From Armatimonadota bacterium (GTDB lineage: Bacteria; Armatimonadota; Fimbriimonadia; Fimbriimonadales; Fimbriimonadaceae): 64,000 nt of DNA. The notes below the pieces were generated by a model. It was given only the letters and a program-made list of their open reading frames with translations, was not told the origin of the DNA and searched no databases. Position 1 is the stretch's first letter. Each line of letters begins with the position of its first letter. Made by a program: the position numbers and the translations under genes. Location: the NCBI GenBank assembly GCA_016789105.1, contig JAEURN010000008.1:496001-560000 (forward strand), in the 5' to 3' direction. Positions 5,331 to 17,230 of this stretch are shown here, piece by piece.

Positions 5331-5334
<4 letters not shown>
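4246..5334 (+). CDS. ctaC: caa3 cytochrome oxidase subunit II (CuA domain fused to cytochrome c)
   Basis: The 362-residue protein has two N-terminal transmembrane helices and a cupredoxin CuA domain. It ends in a fused class I cytochrome c with CSNCH at residues 236-240, the hallmark of caa3 oxidases. CuA ligands are visible in [11 protein letters not shown] and in the C-x3-C-x3-H-x2-M loop [12 protein letters not shown]. In that loop the usual C-x-E-x-C glutamate, which ligates only through its backbone carbonyl, is Met. The gene overlaps sco (1 nt) and subunit I (4 nt). It accepts electrons from cytochrome c or ACIII and passes them to subunit I. Confidence 0.95.
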
Positions 5335-7018
<1,684 letters not shown>

Positions 7019-7019
<1 letters not shown>

Positions 7020-7759
7020 TGTCCGACCACGCACACCACGGCCCAAGCGACGGGCCAGAGGTCTACTTCCAGTACGAAGACATTGACCAGCAACAGGAAA
7101 CCTATGTCGTCGGTATGTGGTCGTTCCTGGCAACCGAAGTGATGTTCTTCGGGGCCCTGTTCCTGATCTACACTCTCTACCGGTGGAAGTTCCAAAGTGA
7201 CTTCTTTGGGGCCCATGAACAGCTCAACTGGAAAATGGGTGGGCTCAACACCTTGGTGCTGTTGTTCAGTTCGGTCATGGTGGCGTTTGCCGTCCATTTC
7301 GCCCAACTGGGCAAAAAAGGCCCTCAGCTCGCCTGCCTCGGGGTCACGCTCCTTTGCGCCTTCACATTCTTGGTCGTGAAAACCTATGAATACGGGGCCA
7401 AGTTCGACCACCATCTTTTCCCGAACGACACTTTCAGCTTTGCCGACCCCCACCACCCAGAAGCCGAAAGTCATTGGGAAAATGCCTTGCCGGCGTTCCT
7501 TAAAGTCGAAAAGAAGGAGCAAGAAGGGGATGCCAAGCACGCCCGCGTGTTCTATAGCCTCTACTTCACCATGACGGGCCTGCACGGGCTGCACGTTGTT
7601 ATCGGCATCATCGCCATCACCTCGTTGATGGTGCTCATCCAAATCAAGTCGTCGTTGATCACCGACTACGTTCCAACGGAAATGGTGGGCCTCTATTGGC
7701 ACTTTGTCGACTTGGTGTGGATCTTCCTCTACCCGCTCTTCTATCTCATCCCCAGGTGA
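7019..7759 (+). CDS. ctaE: Cytochrome c oxidase subunit III
   Basis: The 246-residue protein begins with a His-rich cytoplasmic segment and then has about five hydrophobic helices. Signature stretches of subunit III are present: GMWSFLATEVMFFGALF early, GLHGLHVVIGI, and YWHFVDLVWIFLYPLFYL at the end. It stabilises subunit I and is a standard member of the operon, starting at the subunit I stop (1 nt overlap). The hydrophilic stretch between helices 3 and 4 (about residues 125-180) is longer than in compact homologues. Confidence 0.95.
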
Positions 7760-7764
7760 CCACA

Positions 7765-8178
7765 ATGGCCAGCCACGCACACGAACACGCAGAACTCACA
7801 AAAGGCGGGGCCCACCCGCACCACGTGCTCACCCAACCCATGATTATCCGGGTGGCAGGGGCACTCTTCGCCCTGATGGCCATCACCATCATCGCCGCCA
7901 TCTACATGCCCGAGCCCTATAAGGGATACACCGTGCCCATGCAAGTCCTTGCCTTGGCAATCGCCATCGTCAAAGGGGGACTCGTCGTTTGGTATTACAT
8001 GGGTGTGCGATTTGGAACCCGACTCATCAAAATCTTCGCTTTCGGCGGATTCATCTGGTTCTTCACCCTGTTTGTCATGCTCTGCGACTACACCACAAGG
8101 CCATATGAGCCGGTCAAGGGCTGGGAGAAGGTCTCCAGTTCCGCCCTCCCGCGCTCAACCGCCAAAGAACCGGACTGA
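7765..8178 (+). CDS. ctaF: Cytochrome c oxidase subunit IV family protein
   Basis: The 137-residue protein starts MASHAHEHAELTKGG and has three transmembrane helices, typical of the bacterial subunit IV (CtaF/CyoD-like) family. An in-frame upstream GTG exists, but it would place extra residues over the end of subunit III. The ATG five bases after the previous stop is the natural start. It is the last gene of the ACIII-cox operon and is followed within 55 bp by a strong hairpin terminator. It is a small accessory subunit with no cofactor residues. Confidence 0.88.
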   Translation: MASHAHEHAELTKGGAHPHHVLTQPMIIRVAGALFALMAITIIAAIYMPEPYKGYTVPMQVLALAIAIVKGGLVVWYYMGVRFGTRLIKIFAFGGFIWFFTLFVMLCDYTTRPYEPVKGWEKVSSSALPRSTAKEPD

Positions 8179-8865: not shown

Positions 8866-9446
8866 TTGGCCGTGAAGAGTTGGAAGACCGCCTCCGGATA
8901 GGCGATGTGCTCCTGTTCCAGAACCCTTGCCGCCAAAGTCTCGGGCGTGTCCCCAGGGAGCACCGGACACGTGCGCTGAAGGATCGTGTTGCCCTCGTCG
9001 TAGCGCTCCGAAACGTAATGAACGGTGCACCCGGTGAGGGCATCCCCAGAGGCGATAACGGCCTCGTGGACATGGTGCCCATACATCCCCTTGCCGCCAA
9101 ACTTGGGCAGGAGCGCAGGGTGGATGTTCACAATCTGCGTCGGGTGTTGGGCGACAATTTCTTTGGGGAAGAGCCGCGTGTACCCGGCTAAGCACACCAA
9201 ATCGATACCAAGCTCTTGGATCAGCGATTCGATCTGAACCGCGTAATCCTTAGAATCTGGGTTGAGGATGCGGGTTTCTACCCCCAAAGCCGTTGCCCGT
9301 TCCTCGGCCGGGGTTCCTGGACGCGGGGCGACCACGACCGCCACTTGGGCCGGGAAACGCGGATCTTGCGCTGCCTGCACCAATGCCGACATGTTCGACC
9401 CCCGACCGCGCGCCCCCGTGAATATCGCTATCTGAGGTCGGCTCAT
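8862..9446 (-). CDS. purN: Phosphoribosylglycinamide formyltransferase
   Basis: The protein of about 194 residues uses 10-formyltetrahydrofolate to formylate GAR in de novo purine synthesis. The N-terminal phosphate-binding region IAIFTGARGRGSNM is seen, along with the catalytic NIHPALLP (Asn and His) and the later YDEGNTI segment carrying the catalytic Asp. An alternative ATG at 9464 adds six residues; MSRPQIAIF fits the family better. It is translationally coupled to the downstream acyltransferase. Upstream is the terminator of the neighbouring PEP-CTERM gene, so its promoter must lie near or within 9447-9530. Confidence 0.92.
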   Translation of the reverse strand: MSRPQIAIFTGARGRGSNMSALVQAAQDPRFPAQVAVVVAPRPGTPAEERATALGVETRILNPDSKDYAVQIESLIQELGIDLVCLAGYTRLFPKEIVAQHPTQIVNIHPALLPKFGGKGMYGHHVHEAVIASGDALTGCTVHYVSERYDEGNTILQRTCPVLPGDTPETLAARVLEQEHIAYPEAVFQLFTAK

Positions 9447-9472
9447 CGGCCCTGGAGCATACATGATCTATG

Positions 9473-9504
9473 ACAAAGCCCCTCCGGTTGTTGGCCGAAG
9501 GGGC
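9473..9504 (-). terminator. Intrinsic terminator after PEP-CTERM gene
   Basis: On the minus strand a 10-bp stem (GCCCCTTCGG with CCGGAGGGGC, one T-G pair, 7-nt loop) is followed by TTTGTC. It sits 29 nt past the stop of the 9533-10219 gene. Confidence 0.75.
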
Positions 9505-9532
9505 GTTGGAAAGAGTCGCTAGCCGGACTGGC

Positions 9533-10219
9533 TTACTTCTTGCGTCGGCGCAGGGCCGCGAGGGCGGCCGCACCGGCGAAGAGAGTCATGGTTGCCGGTT
9601 CGGGAACCGCTTGGAGGACGTACGTGTTGCCGGTCATGTCGACCACCGTGCTCCATTCGGCTGGGGTTGCCCCAGTCAAGGAGTCGGTCATCGTGTCCGA
9701 ACCGCCGTTTGCCGTGGTCACAGCGTCAAAGATGATCGTGTCGCCCAAGGCCAAGCCGAGGTCGGACAAGTTCACCGTGATCGACGTGCCGAACTGGGAA
9801 AGGGTGGGAGCAATGGCCCCGTTGTTCAGGTTCCAGGCTCCGTTGTAGGTCCACGCTTGGGCGCCGCCGCCGCTATCGACCCAGCTGCCGATCCAACCGT
9901 TTGCGCCACCGCTCAAGTGGCCACTGCGGCCCCAAGCGTTGTTGTTCGCCCCGTTATCGACCGTTGCGTTGGACAGGTTGCGGAAGACGACGCCATATTT
10001 GCCCCAGTTGGTGGCGGCGATGTCGCCTTGCAGTGTGAACGCAAAGGTGATCGTGCTGGCCGTGTTGGTGACATTGACAGCCGTGATGTCGAGGTGGGGG
10101 AACCCTGCGCCGCCGCCGTTAGTCGGGCCTTGGTCGTTCATCGGGTCGGTGAAAAGGGTCGCATTGGCCGCTCCGGCGGCAACGACGGCAATGGCCGTCA
10201 ACAAGAATCGGTGCTTCAT
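9533..10219 (-). CDS. Secreted PEP-CTERM sorting-domain protein, unknown
   Basis: The 228-residue protein has a clear signal peptide (MKHRFLLTAIAVVAAGAANA). A beta-rich Asn/Gly/Thr body includes TITFAFTLQGDI and aromatic Gly-rich stretches. The C-terminus is VPEP followed by a hydrophobic stretch and RRRKK. That end is a PEP-CTERM signal, normally cleaved by an exosortase so the protein is anchored or released at the surface. No catalytic motif is seen. It is monocistronic, with a good promoter at 10279-10307 and a terminator after it. Role unknown; a surface or matrix protein is the usual inference. Confidence 0.85.
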   Translation of the reverse strand: MKHRFLLTAIAVVAAGAANATLFTDPMNDQGPTNGGGAGFPHLDITAVNVTNTASTITFAFTLQGDIAATNWGKYGVVFRNLSNATVDNGANNNAWGRSGHLSGGANGWIGSWVDSGGGAQAWTYNGAWNLNNGAIAPTLSQFGTSITVNLSDLGLALGDTIIFDAVTTANGGSDTMTDSLTGATPAEWSTVVDMTGNTYVLQAVPEPATMTLFAGAAALAALRRRKK

Positions 10220-10278
10220 CGGGGTGTTGGTCTCCTATGACTCGAAGAGGTGGGCCCATCTGGCCCAATCCACAGCCC

Positions 10279-10307
10279 ATCGTATCACGAAAAATACGTA
10301 TTCACAA
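10279..10307 (-). promoter_or_regulatory. Predicted sigma70-type promoter with CG-centred palindrome
   Basis: On the minus strand TTGTGA and TACGAT are separated by 17 bp, about 60 bp upstream of the PEP-CTERM start at 10219. The spacer contains the perfect 10-bp palindrome AATACGTATT (10293-10302). Its central CG resembles half-site centres bound by LacI-family repressors. Promoter call is by pattern; operator role is a guess. Confidence 0.5.
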
Positions 10308-10360
10308 GGGCGGACACCCCTTATTTTTGCTAGATTGGGACTATTCTCTGGTGTTTCCGA

Positions 10361-11497
10361 TCATGGTTGCCTCCCCGTCCCCCAATGCGGCCCCGGCCCC
10401 AGTGACTTCAGGTAGGCATCGCGCCACCGGTGGATGTCCGACGCCGTCGGGACAGGACGCGGGAGCCGCGCTTCCAGAGGGGGCAAAGCGGGGAGCGGCT
10501 CGGCGGACAGGGTTTGGTAGTAATAGGCCACAGTGGCCAATTCCAGGGTCAGGCAGTTGTCGTGCCCATGCTCGATCGAAAAGCTGAGGCTGTTTTGGTA
10601 ACGGATGGGATCCATGTGGTGAAACCGGTAAAGGTGGGTTCGCCCCAGCCAACCGATGCGGGGCTCCGCATTGCCGAAGCCGGGAACCCGAGCAATCCCA
10701 AAGCATGGGTGGTCATACCGTTCGTCGGGTGACCAGGATGTATTGAAATAGTCTTCCGTCCCCGTCCCGTGCAGCCCAGGCCACGGCTCACCATCCACCA
10801 GGATCATATCGTCGCCTTCGCCGTACCACATCGGGCCGGGGTTGTTGACATAGTAGTTGACCCCGACAAAATGGCCGGTGCCGGAAGTTTCTAAAACCAC
10901 AAAGTTGTTTTGAGTCCCCGGGTTTTTCCCATAGGGTCGGAGCAGGGCCCATTCGTTCTCGTCCCGTTCTGCATTTTCCGGCTGGGTGAGTTCTTGCCGG
11001 TATTGCGCATGGAAGTACGCCGTATCGGGAGGGAGCCCGTCCAGTTCTTCCCAATCGACGTAAAAGTAGAGGCGCTCCAGCGGGAACTCGGGCGATTCGT
11101 TCACCAATTCGATCTTTGCGCCAAGGGCGAACGGCATGGGGAAGTAGCAGACCAACGCCCGCCCGTCGCGAGGGGCACATGCTAGGTATGGGCTAGAAAA
11201 GTTGTATGTTTCCCCCCAGCCGTTGCCAAAAAAATCACCGACCGGGCATTCCACGCTCGCATGGGGGTGGCCGTCCCAAGTCATTCTGAGGACGAGGTTT
11301 TTCCGATACATCGGGTCGTGTGAGTGGAGCGTTATCCAGATATGTCGAATCACGCCCGCTCCACTACATTCTTGAAGTGTGCAAGTACTGCCAGCAGCGA
11401 CTTGGACATAGTCGTCGTTGCCGCCCGTGCGGTCATAGCTGGAACTGCGCCGGGACCGCGCACGGGAAATCGTCGTCAGGGCCTGCCAATCGTGCAT
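10361..11497 (-). CDS. DUF2961 / GH172-like protein
   Basis: The 378-residue protein shows the DUF2961 start (RSRRSSSYDRTGGNDDY), the early beta-strand region GAGVIRHIWITL, DFFGNGWG, the conserved GTGTEDYFNTSW, and a late SFSIEHGHDN motif. Members form the GH172 glycoside hydrolase family, in which some act on furanosides (fructofuranosides, arabinofuranosides), usually as multimers. Acidic residues in the TGTEDYF motif are candidate catalytic positions. No signal peptide is apparent, so it may act in the cytoplasm. It starts 6 nt after the cyclase stop and is probably the last gene of a three-gene operon. Substrate unknown. Confidence 0.85.
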   Translation of the reverse strand: MHDWQALTTISRARSRRSSSYDRTGGNDDYVQVAAGSTCTLQECSGAGVIRHIWITLHSHDPMYRKNLVLRMTWDGHPHASVECPVGDFFGNGWGETYNFSSPYLACAPRDGRALVCYFPMPFALGAKIELVNESPEFPLERLYFYVDWEELDGLPPDTAYFHAQYRQELTQPENAERDENEWALLRPYGKNPGTQNNFVVLETSGTGHFVGVNYYVNNPGPMWYGEGDDMILVDGEPWPGLHGTGTEDYFNTSWSPDERYDHPCFGIARVPGFGNAEPRIGWLGRTHLYRFHHMDPIRYQNSLSFSIEHGHDNCLTLELATVAYYYQTLSAEPLPALPPLEARLPRPVPTASDIHRWRDAYLKSLGPGPHWGTGRQP

Positions 11498-11503
11498 GAC
11501 CGC

Positions 11504-13633
11504 TTATTTTAGGCTCATGTGGAAGCTGCCATCCCAATCTTTTTCCGGCGGCTTGCGCATGAACTTGAGGCAACGCGCATGGAGGATCGCACTTGGCCCG
11601 TCGCGGGGGACCTTGGCCAAGATCTCTTCATAGGCTTTTGCAGCCTCTTGAAACCGGCGGTTTTGATAAAGCGCAAAGGCCTCGTTGCTCATCTGGGCCA
11701 GCTCCCGCGTTTCCGGCTTGGCCCCTTGGGCAAATCCCAACGGCTCATAGACGGCATCCGGTTCGAGCCGGCCCATCACCGCCACGGAATCGACGAGCCT
11801 CCAGACAAAGTTCTCCTCTGATTCCAAAAACGTCTTGTGGCTGGCAAGGATGTGGGTGCCATAAAATTTGTTGAGGCCCTGCAGGCGGCTGGCAAGGTTC
11901 ACGCTGTCGCCGATGACCGTGTAGGTCATCCGTTTTTTGCTGCCAACATTGCCGACAATGACATCTCCGGTCGCCACCCCAAAACTGGCACTGAGGGTCG
12001 GCATGTTGTTGTGCCGCAGCTCCACATGCAAATCGTTGATGGCTTGCAGGCTGCGCAGTGCCGCGCCGATGGCGGCAACCGCATGGTCGCCGGTGACTGT
12101 CGGTGCCCCCCAAAATGCCATGACGTCGTCACCATTGAATTTGTCGACCGTGCCTCCGTTATCCAAGACGACATCGCTCAAAACATCCAAGTATTCGGCG
12201 AGGATCTCCACCAAATCCTCTGGGGGAAGTTCGTGGCTGAGCCGGGTGAACCCCACAATGTCCCCAAAGTAGGTGGTGATGTGTCGCCGCTCGCCCCCGA
12301 GTTTGGCTTCCTGTCCGCTGGCGATCAGAGACCGCGCATATTCGGCAGGGACGAGTTTTTCCATGGACCGGAGCCCGGACTTCAAAGTTTCGAAGGAAGC
12401 TGAGAGATTGTCGATTTCGCGGATCCGGCTTTCTAACGGTTTTCCTTCGCCCCACTCAAACCGCTTGATCCGCATCGTTTCTTCCACCAGCTGCTTCAAT
12501 GGTCGGACAACCCGGCCTGCGAGCAGGGTGGCCATCGTTGCCCCAACCGCCAGGGAGAGGGCGGTGAAGGTGGCGAAGAAAAGGGTGGTTTCGCGGGACC
12601 AGTCGACAAAGTCGTTCTGCGGCAGGGCCACCGCCAAAACCCATGGTGGCCTCTGGGCGCCGGCAATCCGGCGAAATCCCAAAAAGTAACGTTCCCGGTT
12701 GTATTTGAACTGGCCCAGCCGGGTTTCGTTGGAATCAAACCGCGGCAGCCCGCGGACTGTCTTGGCCACAATCCGCAGCCGGTCATCGGGGATCTCGTCG
12801 ATGGTCACAAGGCGCGGATTGCCGCCTTCGGTCGTCATAAGTCGCTGAGGCTGGGGGTCGGCGATCACCTTGGTCCGATCCGGAAGCACCTCGATCAAGG
12901 TGGCAAACCCGTGTTGGCTGACCTTGACCGTCTGCAGGAAACGGCTCAAATCGGTCAGGGTGATCGAAATCGAAACCACTCCAAAGAACCGGCCCTCGGC
13001 GTCGGTGATCGGGGCTGAACAGATTGTGCCGAGTTGGGGCCCCGAGGGGAGGTTCTGCAGGACGTCGGCCGTGGTCCAAGAAACCAATTTGGATTCTTTG
13101 GTGATGGAATAGGCGTTGGATGTCCGTTGATCTGCGGCGGTTTCGGAAACCTGTCCGGCTGGCTCCAACCGGTTGCCAAACGGGGTGAACTTCTTCAAGA
13201 CGGTTTTGCCGCCGGCAATGGCCTGGGTTGTCCGCACGACAACGCCGCCGCTGGGGGACTGCGCGACCTGTAGGAATTCGCCCGTTTTATCCAGCGTTAC
13301 GGTGACGGCCGCATATTGGGGCTTCACGCGGATCAGCTCGACCAATTGGGGGGCGAAATGGAGGAAATTTTCGGAATTAAGCGGTTTGGATCCTGGCCCG
13401 ACAATGTTTGGGCTAACCAGGCCGGCGGCGACTCGGGCCTCATTTTCCGTGTCAGAAAGGAGGGCGTCGACCCGTTGGTCGATCAGCCGGCTCGATTGCA
13501 GAATGACCCGGTCGCTCAGCTCGTTCGCCATTTTGCCGACCTTGAGGGATGTGTAAGCCGCCGCCGCGCCAAGGGCGATGAGCAAAACAATAGAAATCCG
13601 GATCAGGAGGGCGGTTTGGAACGAGATGGTCAT
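11504..13633 (-). CDS. Membrane sensor class III adenylate/guanylate cyclase
   Basis: The 709-residue protein has an N-terminal helix, then a periplasmic sensor of about 310 residues resembling a double CACHE domain. A second helix (about 343-365, FFATFTALSLAVGATMATLL) and a HAMP-like linker follow. The cyclase catalytic domain spans about 450-620 and carries metal-binding Asp in FGDIVGFT (about 457) and NGDDVMAF, plus the Asn/Arg transition-state segment VIGDSVNLASRL (about 574-585). The last 65 residues look like a TPR-type helical pair. It should make cAMP or cGMP in response to an extracytoplasmic ligand. It is tightly spaced (6 nt) with both neighbours. Confidence 0.9.
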   Translation of the reverse strand: MTISFQTALLIRISIVLLIALGAAAAYTSLKVGKMANELSDRVILQSSRLIDQRVDALLSDTENEARVAAGLVSPNIVGPGSKPLNSENFLHFAPQLVELIRVKPQYAAVTVTLDKTGEFLQVAQSPSGGVVVRTTQAIAGGKTVLKKFTPFGNRLEPAGQVSETAADQRTSNAYSITKESKLVSWTTADVLQNLPSGPQLGTICSAPITDAEGRFFGVVSISITLTDLSRFLQTVKVSQHGFATLIEVLPDRTKVIADPQPQRLMTTEGGNPRLVTIDEIPDDRLRIVAKTVRGLPRFDSNETRLGQFKYNRERYFLGFRRIAGAQRPPWVLAVALPQNDFVDWSRETTLFFATFTALSLAVGATMATLLAGRVVRPLKQLVEETMRIKRFEWGEGKPLESRIREIDNLSASFETLKSGLRSMEKLVPAEYARSLIASGQEAKLGGERRHITTYFGDIVGFTRLSHELPPEDLVEILAEYLDVLSDVVLDNGGTVDKFNGDDVMAFWGAPTVTGDHAVAAIGAALRSLQAINDLHVELRHNNMPTLSASFGVATGDVIVGNVGSKKRMTYTVIGDSVNLASRLQGLNKFYGTHILASHKTFLESEENFVWRLVDSVAVMGRLEPDAVYEPLGFAQGAKPETRELAQMSNEAFALYQNRRFQEAAKAYEEILAKVPRDGPSAILHARCLKFMRKPPEKDWDGSFHMSLK

Positions 13634-13639
13634 CCGTGG

Positions 13640-15961
13640 CTAGTCGCCGGCGTGATACCTCTCAAAGAGCAAAGCCGCAACCAAAAACGATTCTGGCACA
13701 GCAAACGCCGCCCAGGTTTCAAACCGCTTCCGGTCGAATTCGGCCAAAGCATGCAAGGCGCCCCGCTCGTCGCCAGACGAGTACTTTTCCAAGGCAACCG
13801 AAAATTGGGGCACGCGGCGGCTGAGTCCCCGGTACCGTCGCAGCAGTTCGGTGTCTCTGACCACTTCGCCAAGGGCAAACAGCCGGTAAAGGTCGCGGTC
13901 TAGGTCAAAAAGTTTGGCTGCCCCCAGCAGGCATCTCCGGCGTTTTGTCGAACCAACTGAGGCTTGGGCGGCTTGCAGGATCAGCGGAAGGTCGCCCTCA
14001 TCCCCGACAGTGCCGAGAGCATAGGCCGTCTCGGAGGTGGCTTCATGCGGATACCACTCCAGGGCCGTTCTCAAGCTTGGGGCCAAGTCTTTGATGGCAA
14101 GCTCGGAAATCGCCTCGGCGGCAGCCGTCCGGATGCTGGGGTGTGCTTCCAACAGGGCATCGGCAAAAAGGCTGGGGTCGTTGGCACCCAGATTCCGGAG
14201 GGCTTGCAGGGCGGCCCGCCGAATGTCGGCATCGCCAGGTTGGGTGGCGGCTGCACGCAGCGATTCGATCGCCCGGGGGTCGCCAAGTCGGCCCAAAGCC
14301 TTGGCCGCGGCCCGGCGGAGGATGCTGCTGGGGTTTTCCAACATTTCGACAAGGAACGAAAGCGCCACCGGCTGGCCCGAATCCCCGAGGGCTTCGATCG
14401 TCTCCTCCTCGACTGATTCGGGATGGGCCCGGGCGTGTTCCATCAGGGCTTCGGCCGCCCCCAATGTGCGCAAACGCCCAAGGGCAAAGGTCGCTTCCCG
14501 CCGGATTTGCGGCGACGGGTCGTACAGCGCCTCGTGAAGTTCGTTAGTCCCCAGGCTCATCTTGGTTTCCCCCATGGACCGGATCGCCCCGAGACGGGTG
14601 CGTTCGTCGGTGCCCCGCCGCACCGTACGCAATGCGGCAAACGACCGGGGGGTCACGCCCGTAATCTGCCGGACGGTTTCCGAAAGCGGGGATGCCCCCC
14701 GCTCCTTGACACGGGTCAGAAGCAGCAATGCGATCACCCGCTCCACCGTAACGGCGGCAAAGACGAGTTTGTAGGCCCACTCAGCCCCCTGCAAGGGGCG
14801 GAGCGCGGCCAGCATCCAACTGCCCGCCAACGGCGAGACGGCCAGCGCAATGCTGTTGACCGTCAATGCCGTTGCCAAATAGTTGGCGCGGTTCGATTCG
14901 TTGGAAGAGGCCAGATATAGGTTCATCTGCCCAACCCCGACCCCCGACCAAAAAATTCCGACAAAAACATGACCGATCCCCAAGATCAACATGTTTTGCA
15001 AGGGGTTGCCGGCCTGGCAGGCCACCCACATCAAGGGCGTCAACGTCACGCCCCCGGCGGTCAAGAGCAGGAGCGGCTTGTTGCCATACCGGTCTGCCAG
15101 AAATCCGCTGACTTTGACCGTCAACAGAGTGCCGACCGCTGAGGCCACACTGGTCACCTGCAGGACAGTGAAGTCCAATTTTAAGGTCTCGAAAGCAAAG
15201 GCCGAGAACAGGTTCCCGGCAAACCCCTGGCTGATGGCGATCCAGGCGCCAAAGGCCATGATGCGGCGGAAGTTCGGATCCCGCAAAGGCTCGCGGACTA
15301 CCCCCACCACCTCCCGCAAATCGGGCTTAACGACCTCTTCCCGGTTGGAATCGGTCATCCGGTAGTAATAAAGCATGCTCAAAGCGGCAAAAACCCACCC
15401 GAGCCCAAAAACAATCGTGAAACCCACGCCTTCATTTGGGGTTCCTTTGAACAAGTCGAGCAGGCGGGCACCGACCAAGCCGACCACCATGCCGGTGACC
15501 GTGGCGATCATGGTTCTTTGGCTGAAATACCAACCCCGCGCGCGTTCGGGGACGATTTTGCCGAGCCACTCGTTGTAGATGGGGTTGACCAGGTTCACGC
15601 AAAACGCGGCCAACGTGAGGCAGAACAACAAGATGGCCAATTTGGCCGGGTTGGGGAGAGGAGCCAGCGGCAACAGGATGATGGGGAGGAACAAGAGCCT
15701 CCAGGCCAGACCGCCCCGGGCCACATAACTCTTGAAACTGGAAGACGCCCGGCCGAGTGCCGCCCCCGGGATCTGCATCAGCCCCATGGCTGCGGGCAGT
15801 GCGCCCAACAGGCCGATGGCGAAATCTCCGCCGCCCAAATACTGGACGAAACCGACCATCAACGATCCCCCAAAAAGGGTGATGAACGCCGTGGCGTAAG
15901 CCCCGTCCCAATTGGCGACACGGAGCGTATCGAGGGTTTCGAGCCGCGATGGGGCCGCCAT
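13640..15961 (-). CDS. MFS transporter fused to C-terminal HEAT-repeat domain
   Basis: The 773-residue protein starts MAAPSRLETLDTLR; an upstream in-frame start would run towards the neighbouring terminator. Residues 1 to about 440 form a 12-helix major facilitator transporter with the usual charged loop after helix 2 and another after helix 6. From about residue 460 to 720 there are tandem HEAT/PBS-lyase-like repeats (e.g. REATFALGRL, RRAAAKALGRLGDPRAIESL, RRAALQALRNLG). These form a soluble solenoid, probably cytoplasmic, for protein contacts. The fusion is unusual. It heads a run with the cyclase and the GH172-like gene (6-nt gaps). Substrate unknown. Confidence 0.88.
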   Translation of the reverse strand: MAAPSRLETLDTLRVANWDGAYATAFITLFGGSLMVGFVQYLGGGDFAIGLLGALPAAMGLMQIPGAALGRASSSFKSYVARGGLAWRLLFLPIILLPLAPLPNPAKLAILLFCLTLAAFCVNLVNPIYNEWLGKIVPERARGWYFSQRTMIATVTGMVVGLVGARLLDLFKGTPNEGVGFTIVFGLGWVFAALSMLYYYRMTDSNREEVVKPDLREVVGVVREPLRDPNFRRIMAFGAWIAISQGFAGNLFSAFAFETLKLDFTVLQVTSVASAVGTLLTVKVSGFLADRYGNKPLLLLTAGGVTLTPLMWVACQAGNPLQNMLILGIGHVFVGIFWSGVGVGQMNLYLASSNESNRANYLATALTVNSIALAVSPLAGSWMLAALRPLQGAEWAYKLVFAAVTVERVIALLLLTRVKERGASPLSETVRQITGVTPRSFAALRTVRRGTDERTRLGAIRSMGETKMSLGTNELHEALYDPSPQIRREATFALGRLRTLGAAEALMEHARAHPESVEEETIEALGDSGQPVALSFLVEMLENPSSILRRAAAKALGRLGDPRAIESLRAAATQPGDADIRRAALQALRNLGANDPSLFADALLEAHPSIRTAAAEAISELAIKDLAPSLRTALEWYPHEATSETAYALGTVGDEGDLPLILQAAQASVGSTKRRRCLLGAAKLFDLDRDLYRLFALGEVVRDTELLRRYRGLSRRVPQFSVALEKYSSGDERGALHALAEFDRKRFETWAAFAVPESFLVAALLFERYHAGD

Positions 15962-16013
15962 CCATTGATTTTGAAGGCGGCAGGGGGGGTGACCTAGGGG
16001 CTTTTTAAAGAGC

Positions 16014-16037
16014 AAAAGGCCCCCCAAATGGAGGGCC
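16014..16037 (-). terminator. Intrinsic terminator after spondin-domain gene
   Basis: On the minus strand GGCCCTCC pairs with GGGGGGCC (8 bp, one T-G pair, 4-nt loop) and is followed by TTTT. It lies 25 nt past the stop of the 16063-16797 gene. Confidence 0.75.
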
Positions 16038-16062
16038 AGGTGAGGTTTGGGGTGAAAAGGGC

Positions 16063-16797
16063 TTACTTCTTGCGGCGGCGGAATGCGGCGGCAATCCCAA
16101 GGCCGAGGACGGCGAACGTGGCCGGTTCGGGAACCGGGGTCACCGTGACGCGGGCCAAGTTGCTATTCAATGTCCAATCCTCTTGCTGTTGCCAGCTGTC
16201 GCCGACGTTCGGGATGATCGTGTCGTGGATCCGGATGCGGTTGTTGGAATCCGCCGGGTTGCCGGATCCACCCAAGAATCCGAGATCGGCAGCGTTTTGG
16301 GTGTTTTGCTCAGTTCCGGCATCCCAGGCGCGGAGCCCGGTGATGACGGTTGAGAAGCTGCGCGCCGTGCCATCTTGCTGGAACAGGAAGATGCCCGCGC
16401 TGCTGACGCTTTCCCCTAAGAACCCGTCGTTGGTGTGGCCGAGCATCGTCGCAAAACTCAAGTAGCCGTGGGCCATGTCCGCCGTGAAGGTTGATGTGCT
16501 GGAGTTCCCCGTTGTCAAAGGGCTGCCCGGCAAGCGCCCAAAGGACATCACGGCGCTGCCGGCGGCAGTGGCGATGCTAAACATCGGGGTGGTGTTGCCC
16601 CCTTCGGCGATGGCTTTGATCCCGGCTGAGCTGGTGCCGTTGATGTCAAAGATGTTGAATGTCGAGTCACTAGCGGAAAAGAAGGCCGGGCTCAAAGGCT
16701 GCGGGCCCAGGTTTTCCACGGTGATTTGGAACGTTTGTTGGGCGTTGGCGCCCACGGCAACCGCGGCCAAAGCGGCAAGGGTCAAGATTCGGTTCAT
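16063..16797 (-). CDS. Spondin-domain PEP-CTERM protein
   Basis: The 244-residue protein has the signal peptide MNRILTLAALAAVAVGANA. Most of the mature part resembles a spondin-N domain: the opening FQITVENLGPQPLSPAFF, then AGIKAIAEGG and later GFLGESVSSAGIF. The C-terminus is a PEP-CTERM signal (VPEPATFAVLGLGIAAAFRR and a Lys tail). Spondin-N domains are extracellular adhesive folds. The frame is open for another 92 codons upstream without a signal peptide; the chosen ATG has AGAGGA about 9 nt before it. It is monocistronic with its own terminator. Function unknown; cell-surface role inferred. Confidence 0.85.
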   Translation of the reverse strand: MNRILTLAALAAVAVGANAQQTFQITVENLGPQPLSPAFFSASDSTFNIFDINGTSSAGIKAIAEGGNTTPMFSIATAAGSAVMSFGRLPGSPLTTGNSSTSTFTADMAHGYLSFATMLGHTNDGFLGESVSSAGIFLFQQDGTARSFSTVITGLRAWDAGTEQNTQNAADLGFLGGSGNPADSNNRIRIHDTIIPNVGDSWQQQEDWTLNSNLARVTVTPVPEPATFAVLGLGIAAAFRRRKK

Positions 16798-17014
16798 TTG
16801 GTTGTTTCCTCTTGTAAGTGCAACTGGGCAAATACATGAGGAGAAGAACCAGGCCCCCGTTTGTGTTCCAAGTTTTTTCCCAAAAGGGGCCGCTGGGTCT
16901 GGTCTCGGGCGTTTTGTAGCTTGGCCAGTTGGGGCAAATGGGCCGGATACAGTCAAAAAGACGCCAATGTGGACAGAAAGGCCGCACTTTTTGCCAGAAA
17001 CTGCCCGGGACCCC

Positions 17015-17043
17015 TTGACCCTGCCTTGGGGACCGCCTATAAT
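17015..17043 (+). promoter_or_regulatory. Promoter of the 16S rRNA unit
   Basis: TTGACC (17015-17020) and a perfect TATAAT (17038-17043) are separated by exactly 17 bp. They lie 188 bp upstream of the mature 16S 5' end and just upstream of the processing-stem arm. This is the best consensus promoter in the window. Confidence 0.8.
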
Positions 17044-17075
17044 TTCACTCGCCCCTCTTGAGGTGGCCAGCAAAT

Positions 17076-17097
17076 TGACAGTTCAATAAAGTGTGAA
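17076..17097 (+). other. 5' arm of pre-16S processing stem
   Basis: TGACAGTTCA and GTGTGAA, separated by a 5-nt bulge (ATAAA), are complementary to TTCACAC and TGAACTGTCA at 18805-18821 beyond the 3' end of 16S. Such long-range pairing flanks rRNA and is the normal RNase III substrate. Confidence 0.75.
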
Positions 17098-17230
17098 GAC
17101 GCAGCATTCAGTAGCAACGAACCGGGCTTCGGCCCAGTTCCGAGCAACATGCAAATACTCCACAAGAGTTTTGTGTGTCCTGTAAAGAACAATTCAGAAA
17201 GCCAAAAAGCTTCTCTGTAAGAAAACCATT
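17098..17230 (+). other. 16S rRNA leader
   Basis: This leader of about 130 nt lies between the processing-stem arm and mature 16S. It contains a small GGGC-TTCG-GCCC hairpin near 17121-17134 and is otherwise non-coding. I see no protein gene or tRNA in it. Confidence 0.6.

What the first reader, a model, noticed from the sequence alone, without database searches (positions are those of the whole stretch)
10361..15961. MFS-HEAT fusion / CACHE cyclase / GH172-like protein operon
The three genes are spaced by 6 nt each. A transporter carrying a cytoplasmic HEAT solenoid, a cyclase with a large external sensor, and a DUF2961 protein may form a nutrient-sensing unit: sugar uptake, second messenger, glycoside cleavage. 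The MFS-HEAT fusion itself is uncommon.
Basis: partly seen in the sequence, partly recalled or inferred. Interest (0 to 1): 0.52.

Follow-up and report, generated by a model that had tools for sequence, protein, structure and literature searches.

The report
Conserved transporter, cAMP cyclase, glycosidase operon
Three neighbouring genes, for a membrane transporter with a helical inner arm, an outward-looking enzyme that should make the signal cAMP, and a sugar-cleaving enzyme, have stayed together in related bacteria, so they probably work together, although what they carry and sense is unknown.

Summary
In detail: three minus-strand genes at 10361-15961, 6 nt apart, encode MFS-HEAT (773 aa), a dCACHE-HAMP-class III cyclase (709 aa) and a cytosolic DUF2961/GH172 enzyme (378 aa). 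The genome is Fimbriimonadaceae (Armatimonadota).

Gene order is kept. All 8 genus genomes have the trio. In the family, MFS-HEAT directly precedes the cyclase in 20 of 26 genomes with the cyclase orthologue; GH172 follows the cyclase in 16 of 26. The cyclase is confined to one supported clade. Active-site residues are intact: 25 of 25 cyclases read, 56 of 56 GH172s.

MFS-HEAT is not uncommon here: 200 of 291 Armatimonadota genomes match (some partially). Nor is it dedicated to GH172: all 16 family genomes without GH172 still match, wholly or partly. Cargo, ligand and HEAT-cyclase contact remain unknown.

Closest precedent: NTT-HEAT-cNBD transporters. Verdict: a real, conserved transport-signalling operon; new variant of a known kind.

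The parts
13640..15961 (-). MFS-HEAT fusion protein P0001, 773 aa (first gene of the operon)
   Evidence: ORF; Pfam MFS_1 and HEAT_2; AlphaFold pLDDT 84.5
14693..15961 (-). MFS transporter domain, residues 1-423
   Evidence: Pfam MFS_1 26-377; VIA-align to MFS structures over 5-423, best Z 34.1 (SotB), tied within 1 with others
13652..14650 (-). C-terminal HEAT solenoid, residues 438-770, presumed cytosolic (MFS proteins have both ends inside; recalled)
   Evidence: Pfam HEAT_2 97.2 bits; alpha-Rep/HEAT matches in PDB by sequence and fold
11504..13633 (-). Receptor adenylate cyclase P0002, 709 aa
   Evidence: ORF; Pfam Guanylate_cyc; model
12599..13543 (-). Extracytoplasmic double CACHE sensor, residues 31-345, between membrane helices near 8-26 and 353-371
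   Evidence: dCache_1 partial match (below cut-off); VIA-align PctD Z 21.5, rmsd 4.0, 278 aligned; McpX Z 20.5, 247 aligned; hydropathy
11738..12295 (-). Class III cyclase catalytic domain, residues 447-632; D458, K498, D502, T572, N579, R583
   Evidence: 3r5g CyaB 108.6 bits, VIA-align Z 22.3; six residues invariant in 25 of 25 orthologues read
11555..11716 (-). Short helical TPR-like tail of the cyclase, residues 640-693
   Evidence: TPR_2 E 6e-4, below cut-off; helices in model
10361..11497 (-). DUF2961/GH172 protein P0003, 378 aa, without signal peptide or membrane helix; catalytic pair E227 and E248, plus D249
   Evidence: Pfam DUF2961 252.8 bits; PDB 4kq7 361 bits, 8ah3 355 bits; residues in 56 of 56; hydropathy
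16018..16037 (-). Terminator-like hairpin after the upstream PEP-CTERM gene, about 57 nt before the operon's first ATG
   Evidence: consensus scan only

Best explanation
The three genes are one transcription unit that couples an ancient, phylum-wide inner-membrane transporter (MFS with a cytosolic HEAT arm) to a later-acquired, ligand-gated cAMP signal and a cytosolic furanosidase. Steps: (1) the MFS domain moves a small solute, direction and identity unknown, and its HEAT arm is a cytosolic docking or regulatory surface (inferred); (2) the cyclase reads a periplasmic ligand through its dCACHE domain and makes cAMP (architecture and catalytic residues shown; activity inferred); (3) cAMP acts on receptors encoded elsewhere, most likely the stand-alone cNBD protein of this genome (presence shown, link inferred); (4) GH172 hydrolyses an alpha-furanosidic bond in the cytosol (family and catalytic residues shown; substrate inferred from relatives). 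Shown: co-linearity, conservation of linkage, and confinement of the cyclase to one clade. Not shown: transport, ligand, physical contact, and whether the transported solute is the GH172 substrate.
For: 6-nt gaps. Trio in 8 of 8 genus genomes; MFS-HEAT then cyclase adjacent in 19 genomes of 8 genera, plus G050 across a contig break. Cyclase then GH172 in 13 genomes by strict count, 16 with G031, G033 and G054. No adjacency outside the trio recurs in more than 2 genera. Cyclase presence needs only 2 changes on the MFS-HEAT tree and lies in one 24-row clade with SH-aLRT 100. In the quick GH172 tree all 16 first-position cyclase-linked GH172s fall on one side of a branch with SH-aLRT 95, together with 4 unlinked ones, apart from the bulk of unlinked ones. 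Catalytic residues intact. GH172 nearest solved relatives are 4kq7 and 8ah3; 8ah3 is labelled DG02479, which I take to be HMPREF9455_02479 = DgGH172c, an alpha-D-arabinofuranosidase (PMC10115798, passages read). The own genome holds 2 cNBD proteins, one a stand-alone domain with a GE...RSAT signature (signature recalled) found at 66-83% identity in the 7 other genus genomes.
Against: MFS-HEAT occurs without this cyclase or GH172 beside it in most of the family and phylum, so its basic function needs neither. In 10 of the 26 cyclase genomes GH172 is not next to the cyclase. HEAT is no more conserved in cyclase genomes than elsewhere, and distance correlations do not favour HEAT over MFS as the cyclase's partner. 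Cyclase-GH172 co-occurrence (Fisher p 0.0002) is no independent evidence, because the cyclase changed state only twice on the tree. The genome has 4 PF00211 matches, so cAMP is probably not made only here.
Confidence: 0.5

Rival explanations
1. MFS-HEAT is a core housekeeping permease with a non-sugar cargo (nucleoside-like, or cell-wall fragments). Cyclase and GH172 were placed behind it in one clade and share its transcript, but there is no common nutrient route.
For: Phylum-wide distribution, including 1.5-Mb genomes without any GH172 match; changing neighbours: RodA/FtsW in G113 and G118, cdaA-GNAT in family f2, NamZ nearby in G011, G012, G020, G021, G023, G025. YegT, a nucleoside symporter, is the first MFS hit by Foldseek.
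Against: The linkage to the cyclase was held through wide divergence and rearrangement of the flanks, which argues for more than an accident. MFS fold matches do not tell the cargo: SotB, G6PT, MCT10 and VMAT2 lie within about 3 Z units.
Confidence: 0.3
2. One reading: sugar is imported by MFS-HEAT, cleaved by GH172, and sensed outside by the cyclase; the HEAT arm binds the cyclase to tune uptake.
For: Trio intact in the genus and in G032, G035 and G054, and with one extra ORF inside in G031 and G033; a cytosolic GH172 fits cleavage after uptake; two g11 genomes also have a 648-649-aa DUF2961-related protein with a hydrophobic N-terminus beside the locus.
Against: MFS-HEAT persists where GH172 is absent; no clear HEAT signature specific to the cyclase clade, only 3 group-specific positions, 2 of them in the MFS part; sensor pocket positions vary between genera.
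Confidence: 0.15
3. No functional link: the genes are merely co-transcribed by descent.
For: The cyclase entered once, so linkage could be inherited; purN, plsC and cox surroundings are also kept between genera g1 and g15.
Against: Flanking genes have been exchanged across 8-9 genera while this pair stayed; in G046 and G047 the cyclase-GH172 block is inverted relative to MFS-HEAT but intact, and in G029 it persists without MFS-HEAT.
Confidence: 0.05

Closest known systems
NTT-HEAT and NTT-HEAT-cNBD proteins (PMC5381601, passages read)
   Same: A transporter domain fused to a C-terminal HEAT solenoid, with a genetic link to cyclic-nucleotide signalling; function unknown in both
   Different: Transporter is MFS_1, not an NTT domain (no such Pfam hit). 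The linked gene makes cAMP rather than binds it, and no cNBD lies near it (the 2 cNBD genes are on other contigs)
Class III adenylate cyclase CyaB of Pseudomonas aeruginosa (PDB 3r5g)
   Same: Catalytic domain, 108.6 bits by sequence and Z 22.3 by fold; same kind of metal, adenine and transition-state residues (residue roles recalled)
   Different: Here a dCACHE-HAMP input and a short TPR-like tail
GH172 alpha-D-arabinofuranosidase DgGH172c (taken as PDB 8ah3) and BACUNI_00161 (4kq7)
   Same: Full-length match 355-361 bits, same catalytic Glu pair and neighbouring Asp
   Different: Cytosolic and in an operon with cyclase and transporter instead of a polysaccharide utilisation locus; substrate untested
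SLC5/STAC sensor kinases such as CbrA (PMC9100948, abstract start seen in the listing)
   Same: Transporter and signalling output tied together
   Different: There the transporter is fused to a histidine kinase; here the transporter is fused to HEAT and the cyclase is a separate protein with its own sensor

Membership tests
GH172 (DUF2961) | DUF2961 double jelly-roll domain | tested here: met
   PF11175 252.8 bits against cut-off 27, residues 66-328
GH172 (DUF2961) | Two catalytic Glu and the adjacent Asp (E233, E254, D255 of DgGH172c) | tested here: met
   E227, E248, D249 in 56 of 56 aligned; reference residues
GH172 (DUF2961) | Alpha-furanosidase activity and oligomeric assembly | not testable with these tools
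   needs purified enzyme
Class III adenylate cyclase, Thr subtype (IIIb; naming recalled) | Two metal Asp, adenine Lys and Thr, transition-state Asn and Arg | tested here: met
   D458, D502, K498, T572, N579, R583 in 25 of 25 orthologues read; residue roles recalled
Class III adenylate cyclase, Thr subtype (IIIb; naming recalled) | Makes cAMP from ATP | not testable with these tools
   needs assay
dCACHE_1 receptors | Two-lobed extracytoplasmic CACHE fold between two membrane helices | tested here: met
   fold matches PctD Z 21.5 and McpX Z 20.5; helices 8-26 and 353-371. Pfam score 27.2 is below the cut-off 45
Amino-acid or amine dCACHE sensor | Aromatic pair and final Asp of the ligand pocket (paper passages) | tested here: inconclusive
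   By my own reading of the alignment the window has A174-Y175 and S223 where several other genera have W/F-Y/F and D; positions were not placed by a structure superposition
NTT-HEAT | NTT (ATP/ADP translocase) transporter domain | tested here: not met
   Pfam lists MFS_1 and no NTT family at E up to 0.1
NTT-HEAT | C-terminal HEAT domain | tested here: met
   HEAT_2 97.2 bits
NTT-HEAT | cNBD fused or next door (in the NTT-HEAT-cNBD form) | tested here: not met
   No cNBD hit on P0001; the 2 PF00027 hits lie on contigs C6 and C11, the operon on C8

The most novel reading that the evidence does not exclude
MFS-HEAT is a phylum-wide transporter whose cytosolic HEAT arm is a receiver for adenine-based second-messenger systems: it is wired to a cAMP receptor-cyclase in one Fimbriimonadaceae clade and, in a sister family, to the c-di-AMP cyclase CdaA (its gene ends a cdaA-containing gene row in 4 of 5 f2 loci examined). 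Transport would then be gated by, or itself gate, nucleotide second messengers through a HEAT solenoid.
Probability: 0.18. Interest if true: 0.68.

Novelty: new variant of a known kind. Interest (0 to 1): 0.42.

Why it matters
Transporters fused to HEAT arms are widespread in bacteria, yet no function is known for the arm (PMC5381601 calls the interplay unknown; passages). A conserved operon that sets such a transporter beside a receptor cyclase gives a concrete, testable partner, and the phylum-wide distribution gives a natural experiment: the same transporter with and without the cyclase. It would also give GH172, tested so far in enzymes of a few bacteria, a regulatory context.

Tried and rejected
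Co-occurrence of cyclase and GH172 as evidence: Fisher p 0.0002 over 85 genomes (25/26 against 34/59, GH172 counted when E was below about 1e-110), but only 2 independent contrasts on the tree, so set aside.

HEAT-cyclase co-evolution: partial distance correlations HEAT given MFS 0.52 against MFS given HEAT 0.52 for the HAMP-cyclase part, 0.30 against 0.56 for dCACHE; no fixed group differences; no support for HEAT as the preferred partner (the 22 genomes that have both aligned; rows without both were dropped).

Cargo from fold: Foldseek ranks YegT first among MFS, VIA-align ranks SotB, G6PT and MCT10; near ties, no cargo call.

A constant partner of MFS-HEAT outside the cyclase clade: none. 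Within the family the commonest neighbour, a response regulator cluster, is within 2 genes in 9 of 56 genomes (Pfam of one member). Of 20 loci examined outside the family, none showed a hit to P0002 or P0003 among the printed neighbours.

Paper searches for MFS-HEAT or this operon listed nothing that names it in title or abstract start; listings only, full texts not read apart from PMC5381601 passages.

Rows dropped: five genomes with weaker cyclase matches (29-33% identity; G005, G027, G036, G043, G070) and a second weak hit in G048 were not counted as orthologues. G050's cyclase was left out's 25 rows. My ORF picker missed P0003's orthologue in G054 and the MFS-HEAT gene in G067 and G077; G054 was restored from the coordinates. 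MFS-HEAT trees used the 70 genomes whose picked protein exceeds 690 aa, with a quick search and a simple model; the GH172 tree was also a quick one and used a selection of family sequences (56 rows).
Full report
OBSERVATION. The three genes are present exactly as stated: minus strand, 15961..13640, 13633..11504 and 11497..10361, with 6 nt between each stop and the next start. Pfam gives MFS_1 and HEAT on the first, Guanylate_cyc with sub-threshold dCache_1, HAMP and TPR on the second, and DUF2961 on the third. A terminator-like hairpin follows the upstream PEP-CTERM gene about 57 nt before the first ATG, and the scan found no sigma-70-like site on the minus strand of 9400-17200. Consensus scans are weak evidence for this phylum. 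In G078, G079 and G082 my ORF calls place a divergent gene 85-138 nt before MFS-HEAT, so in those genomes the unit should start at MFS-HEAT.

ANATOMY. The MFS-HEAT model (pLDDT 84.5, 10-sequence alignment) has the MFS fold to about residue 423 and a helical solenoid to 770. The HEAT part is about as conserved as the MFS part among 70 family sequences. The cyclase model shows an extracytoplasmic two-lobed domain like PctD and McpX and a catalytic domain like CyaB. All six residues for metal, adenine and transition state are invariant in the 25 orthologues read (roles recalled), with Lys and Thr at the adenine positions, so ATP is the expected substrate. P0003 has no signal peptide or membrane helix by hydropathy. 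It matches PDB 4kq7 and 8ah3 over its whole length, and it keeps the catalytic pair E227 and E248 plus D249, as do 56 of 56 family sequences aligned. The solved entry 8ah3 is labelled DG02479; I take it to be HMPREF9455_02479, DgGH172c of PMC10115798, which is active on pNP-alpha-D-arabinofuranoside and inactive or nearly so when either Glu is changed (passages read). The difructose dianhydride I synthase/hydrolase of Bifidobacterium dentium, which founded the family (PMC8605356, passages read), is a more distant relative here (209 bits).

CONSERVATION. The window lies in a Fimbriimonadaceae genome; named close relatives include Armatimonadetes bacterium Uphvl-Ar1 and Fimbriimonadaceae ACE_ARM7 and ARM8. 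I searched 85 genomes of the family with each protein: GH172 matches in 69, MFS-HEAT in 84, cyclase (E up to 1e-30) in 31. I count 26 cyclase orthologues (38% identity or more) and set aside five genomes with 29-33% hits. Of the 26, MFS-HEAT lies directly upstream on the same strand in 19 genomes of 8 genera. G050 adds one more: its MFS-HEAT contig ends inside the start of the cyclase. In G030 and G051 other ORFs intervene; in G046 and G047 the cyclase-GH172 block points at MFS-HEAT; in G053 the two are 110 kb apart; in G029 there is no MFS-HEAT. The cyclase is followed by GH172 in 13 genomes by strict count; adding G031 and G033, where one ORF intervenes, and G054, which my ORF picker missed, gives 16 of 26. 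No adjacency outside the trio recurs around the locus in more than two genera. All 8 genomes of the window's genus have the trio.

HISTORY. On a quick tree of 70 MFS-HEAT proteins the rows with cyclase fall in one 24-row clade (SH-aLRT 100), with a single cyclase-less row, G052, a 77% complete genome; presence needs 2 changes. The cyclase was therefore probably gained once, at the base of that clade. In a quick GH172 tree of 56 rows, all 16 GH172s in first position after the cyclase lie on one side of a branch with SH-aLRT 95, together with unlinked copies from G004, G034, G048 and G072. The tandem second copies and the remaining unlinked ones lie on the other side. So a particular GH172 lineage seems to go with the cyclase and to have been relocated or lost in some genomes. 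The backbone of that tree is poorly resolved.

WHAT FAILS. MFS-HEAT is not uncommon: 200 of 291 Armatimonadota genomes match at E up to 1e-20 (some matches are fragments or do not reach the end of HEAT). It is present, whole or in part, in all 16 family genomes without a GH172 match. The transporter therefore does not exist for the sake of GH172. Co-occurrence of cyclase and GH172 is confounded by descent. HEAT shows no clear cyclase-specific signature: group mean distances 0.519 against 0.506, and only three group-specific positions, T150 and T278 in the MFS part and L626 in HEAT. The two MFS positions are most often Asn elsewhere, which may hint at a changed cargo in the cyclase clade; this is speculation.

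MECHANISM. I commit to a co-transcribed transport-and-signalling unit: a core MFS-HEAT transporter, to which one clade added a ligand-gated cAMP cyclase and, in most lineages, a cytosolic furanosidase. Candidate cAMP receptors exist: two cNBD proteins in the genome, one a stand-alone domain beside a pilus-type ATPase ORF (by eye) with a canonical-looking binding signature, found in all 8 genus genomes. Sensor pocket positions vary among genera, so the ligand probably differs between them. My confidence in a functional link between MFS-HEAT and cyclase is about 0.85, in GH172 as a third member about 0.6, and in direct HEAT-cyclase contact about 0.25.

COMPARISON AND NOVELTY. The nearest precedent is the NTT-HEAT and NTT-HEAT-cNBD family, for which cAMP control was proposed but not tested (PMC5381601, passages). 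P0001 is not a member, since its transporter domain is MFS_1, but it may work alike. A striking parallel is that in sister family f2, 4 of 5 loci examined have the MFS-HEAT gene at the end of a row with the c-di-AMP cyclase gene cdaA, a further gene that is YbbR-like in the two cases scanned (fused to cdaA in one of them, G150), and a gene that is a GNAT protein in the three cases scanned. This is the basis of the novel reading. It could be chance, since other families show other neighbours (RodA/FtsW, for example). My paper searches listed no description of MFS-HEAT or of this operon; only listings were seen.

Noticed in passing
L257, L258, L260, L261 (sister family f2): MFS-HEAT genes end a cdaA (c-di-AMP cyclase)-YbbR-GNAT gene row in 4 of 5 f2 loci examined.
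   Followed up: partly
L269, L270 (G118, G113): MFS-HEAT directly follows an FtsW/RodA gene in two genomes of another family.
   Followed up: no
L255:1399-2007 (G000 contig C6): Stand-alone cNBD protein with a GE...RSAT signature beside a MinD/CpaE-like ATPase ORF (by eye); candidate cAMP receptor, present in all 8 genus genomes.
   Followed up: partly
L201:15305-17254 and L204:843-2789: A 648-649-aa DUF2961-related protein with a hydrophobic N-terminus lies beside the tandem GH172 genes of two g11 genomes, suggesting secreted plus cytosolic GH172 work.
   Followed up: no
L223:4098-5783: In G031 an ORF that looks by eye like a glutaminyl-tRNA synthetase sits between cyclase and GH172.
   Followed up: no
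window 9533-10219 and 16063-17073: PEP-CTERM proteins flank the operon on both sides on the same strand; the downstream one is kept at this place in several genus relatives.
   Followed up: partly
window 5331-8178: Cytochrome oxidase gene row on the + strand, facing purN and an acyltransferase gene; similar surroundings occur in genus g15, where GH172 is missing between cyclase and purN.
   Followed up: partly
L183 and L185 (G058, G057): MFS-HEAT match ranges of two near-identical genomes contain one TAG.
   Followed up: no
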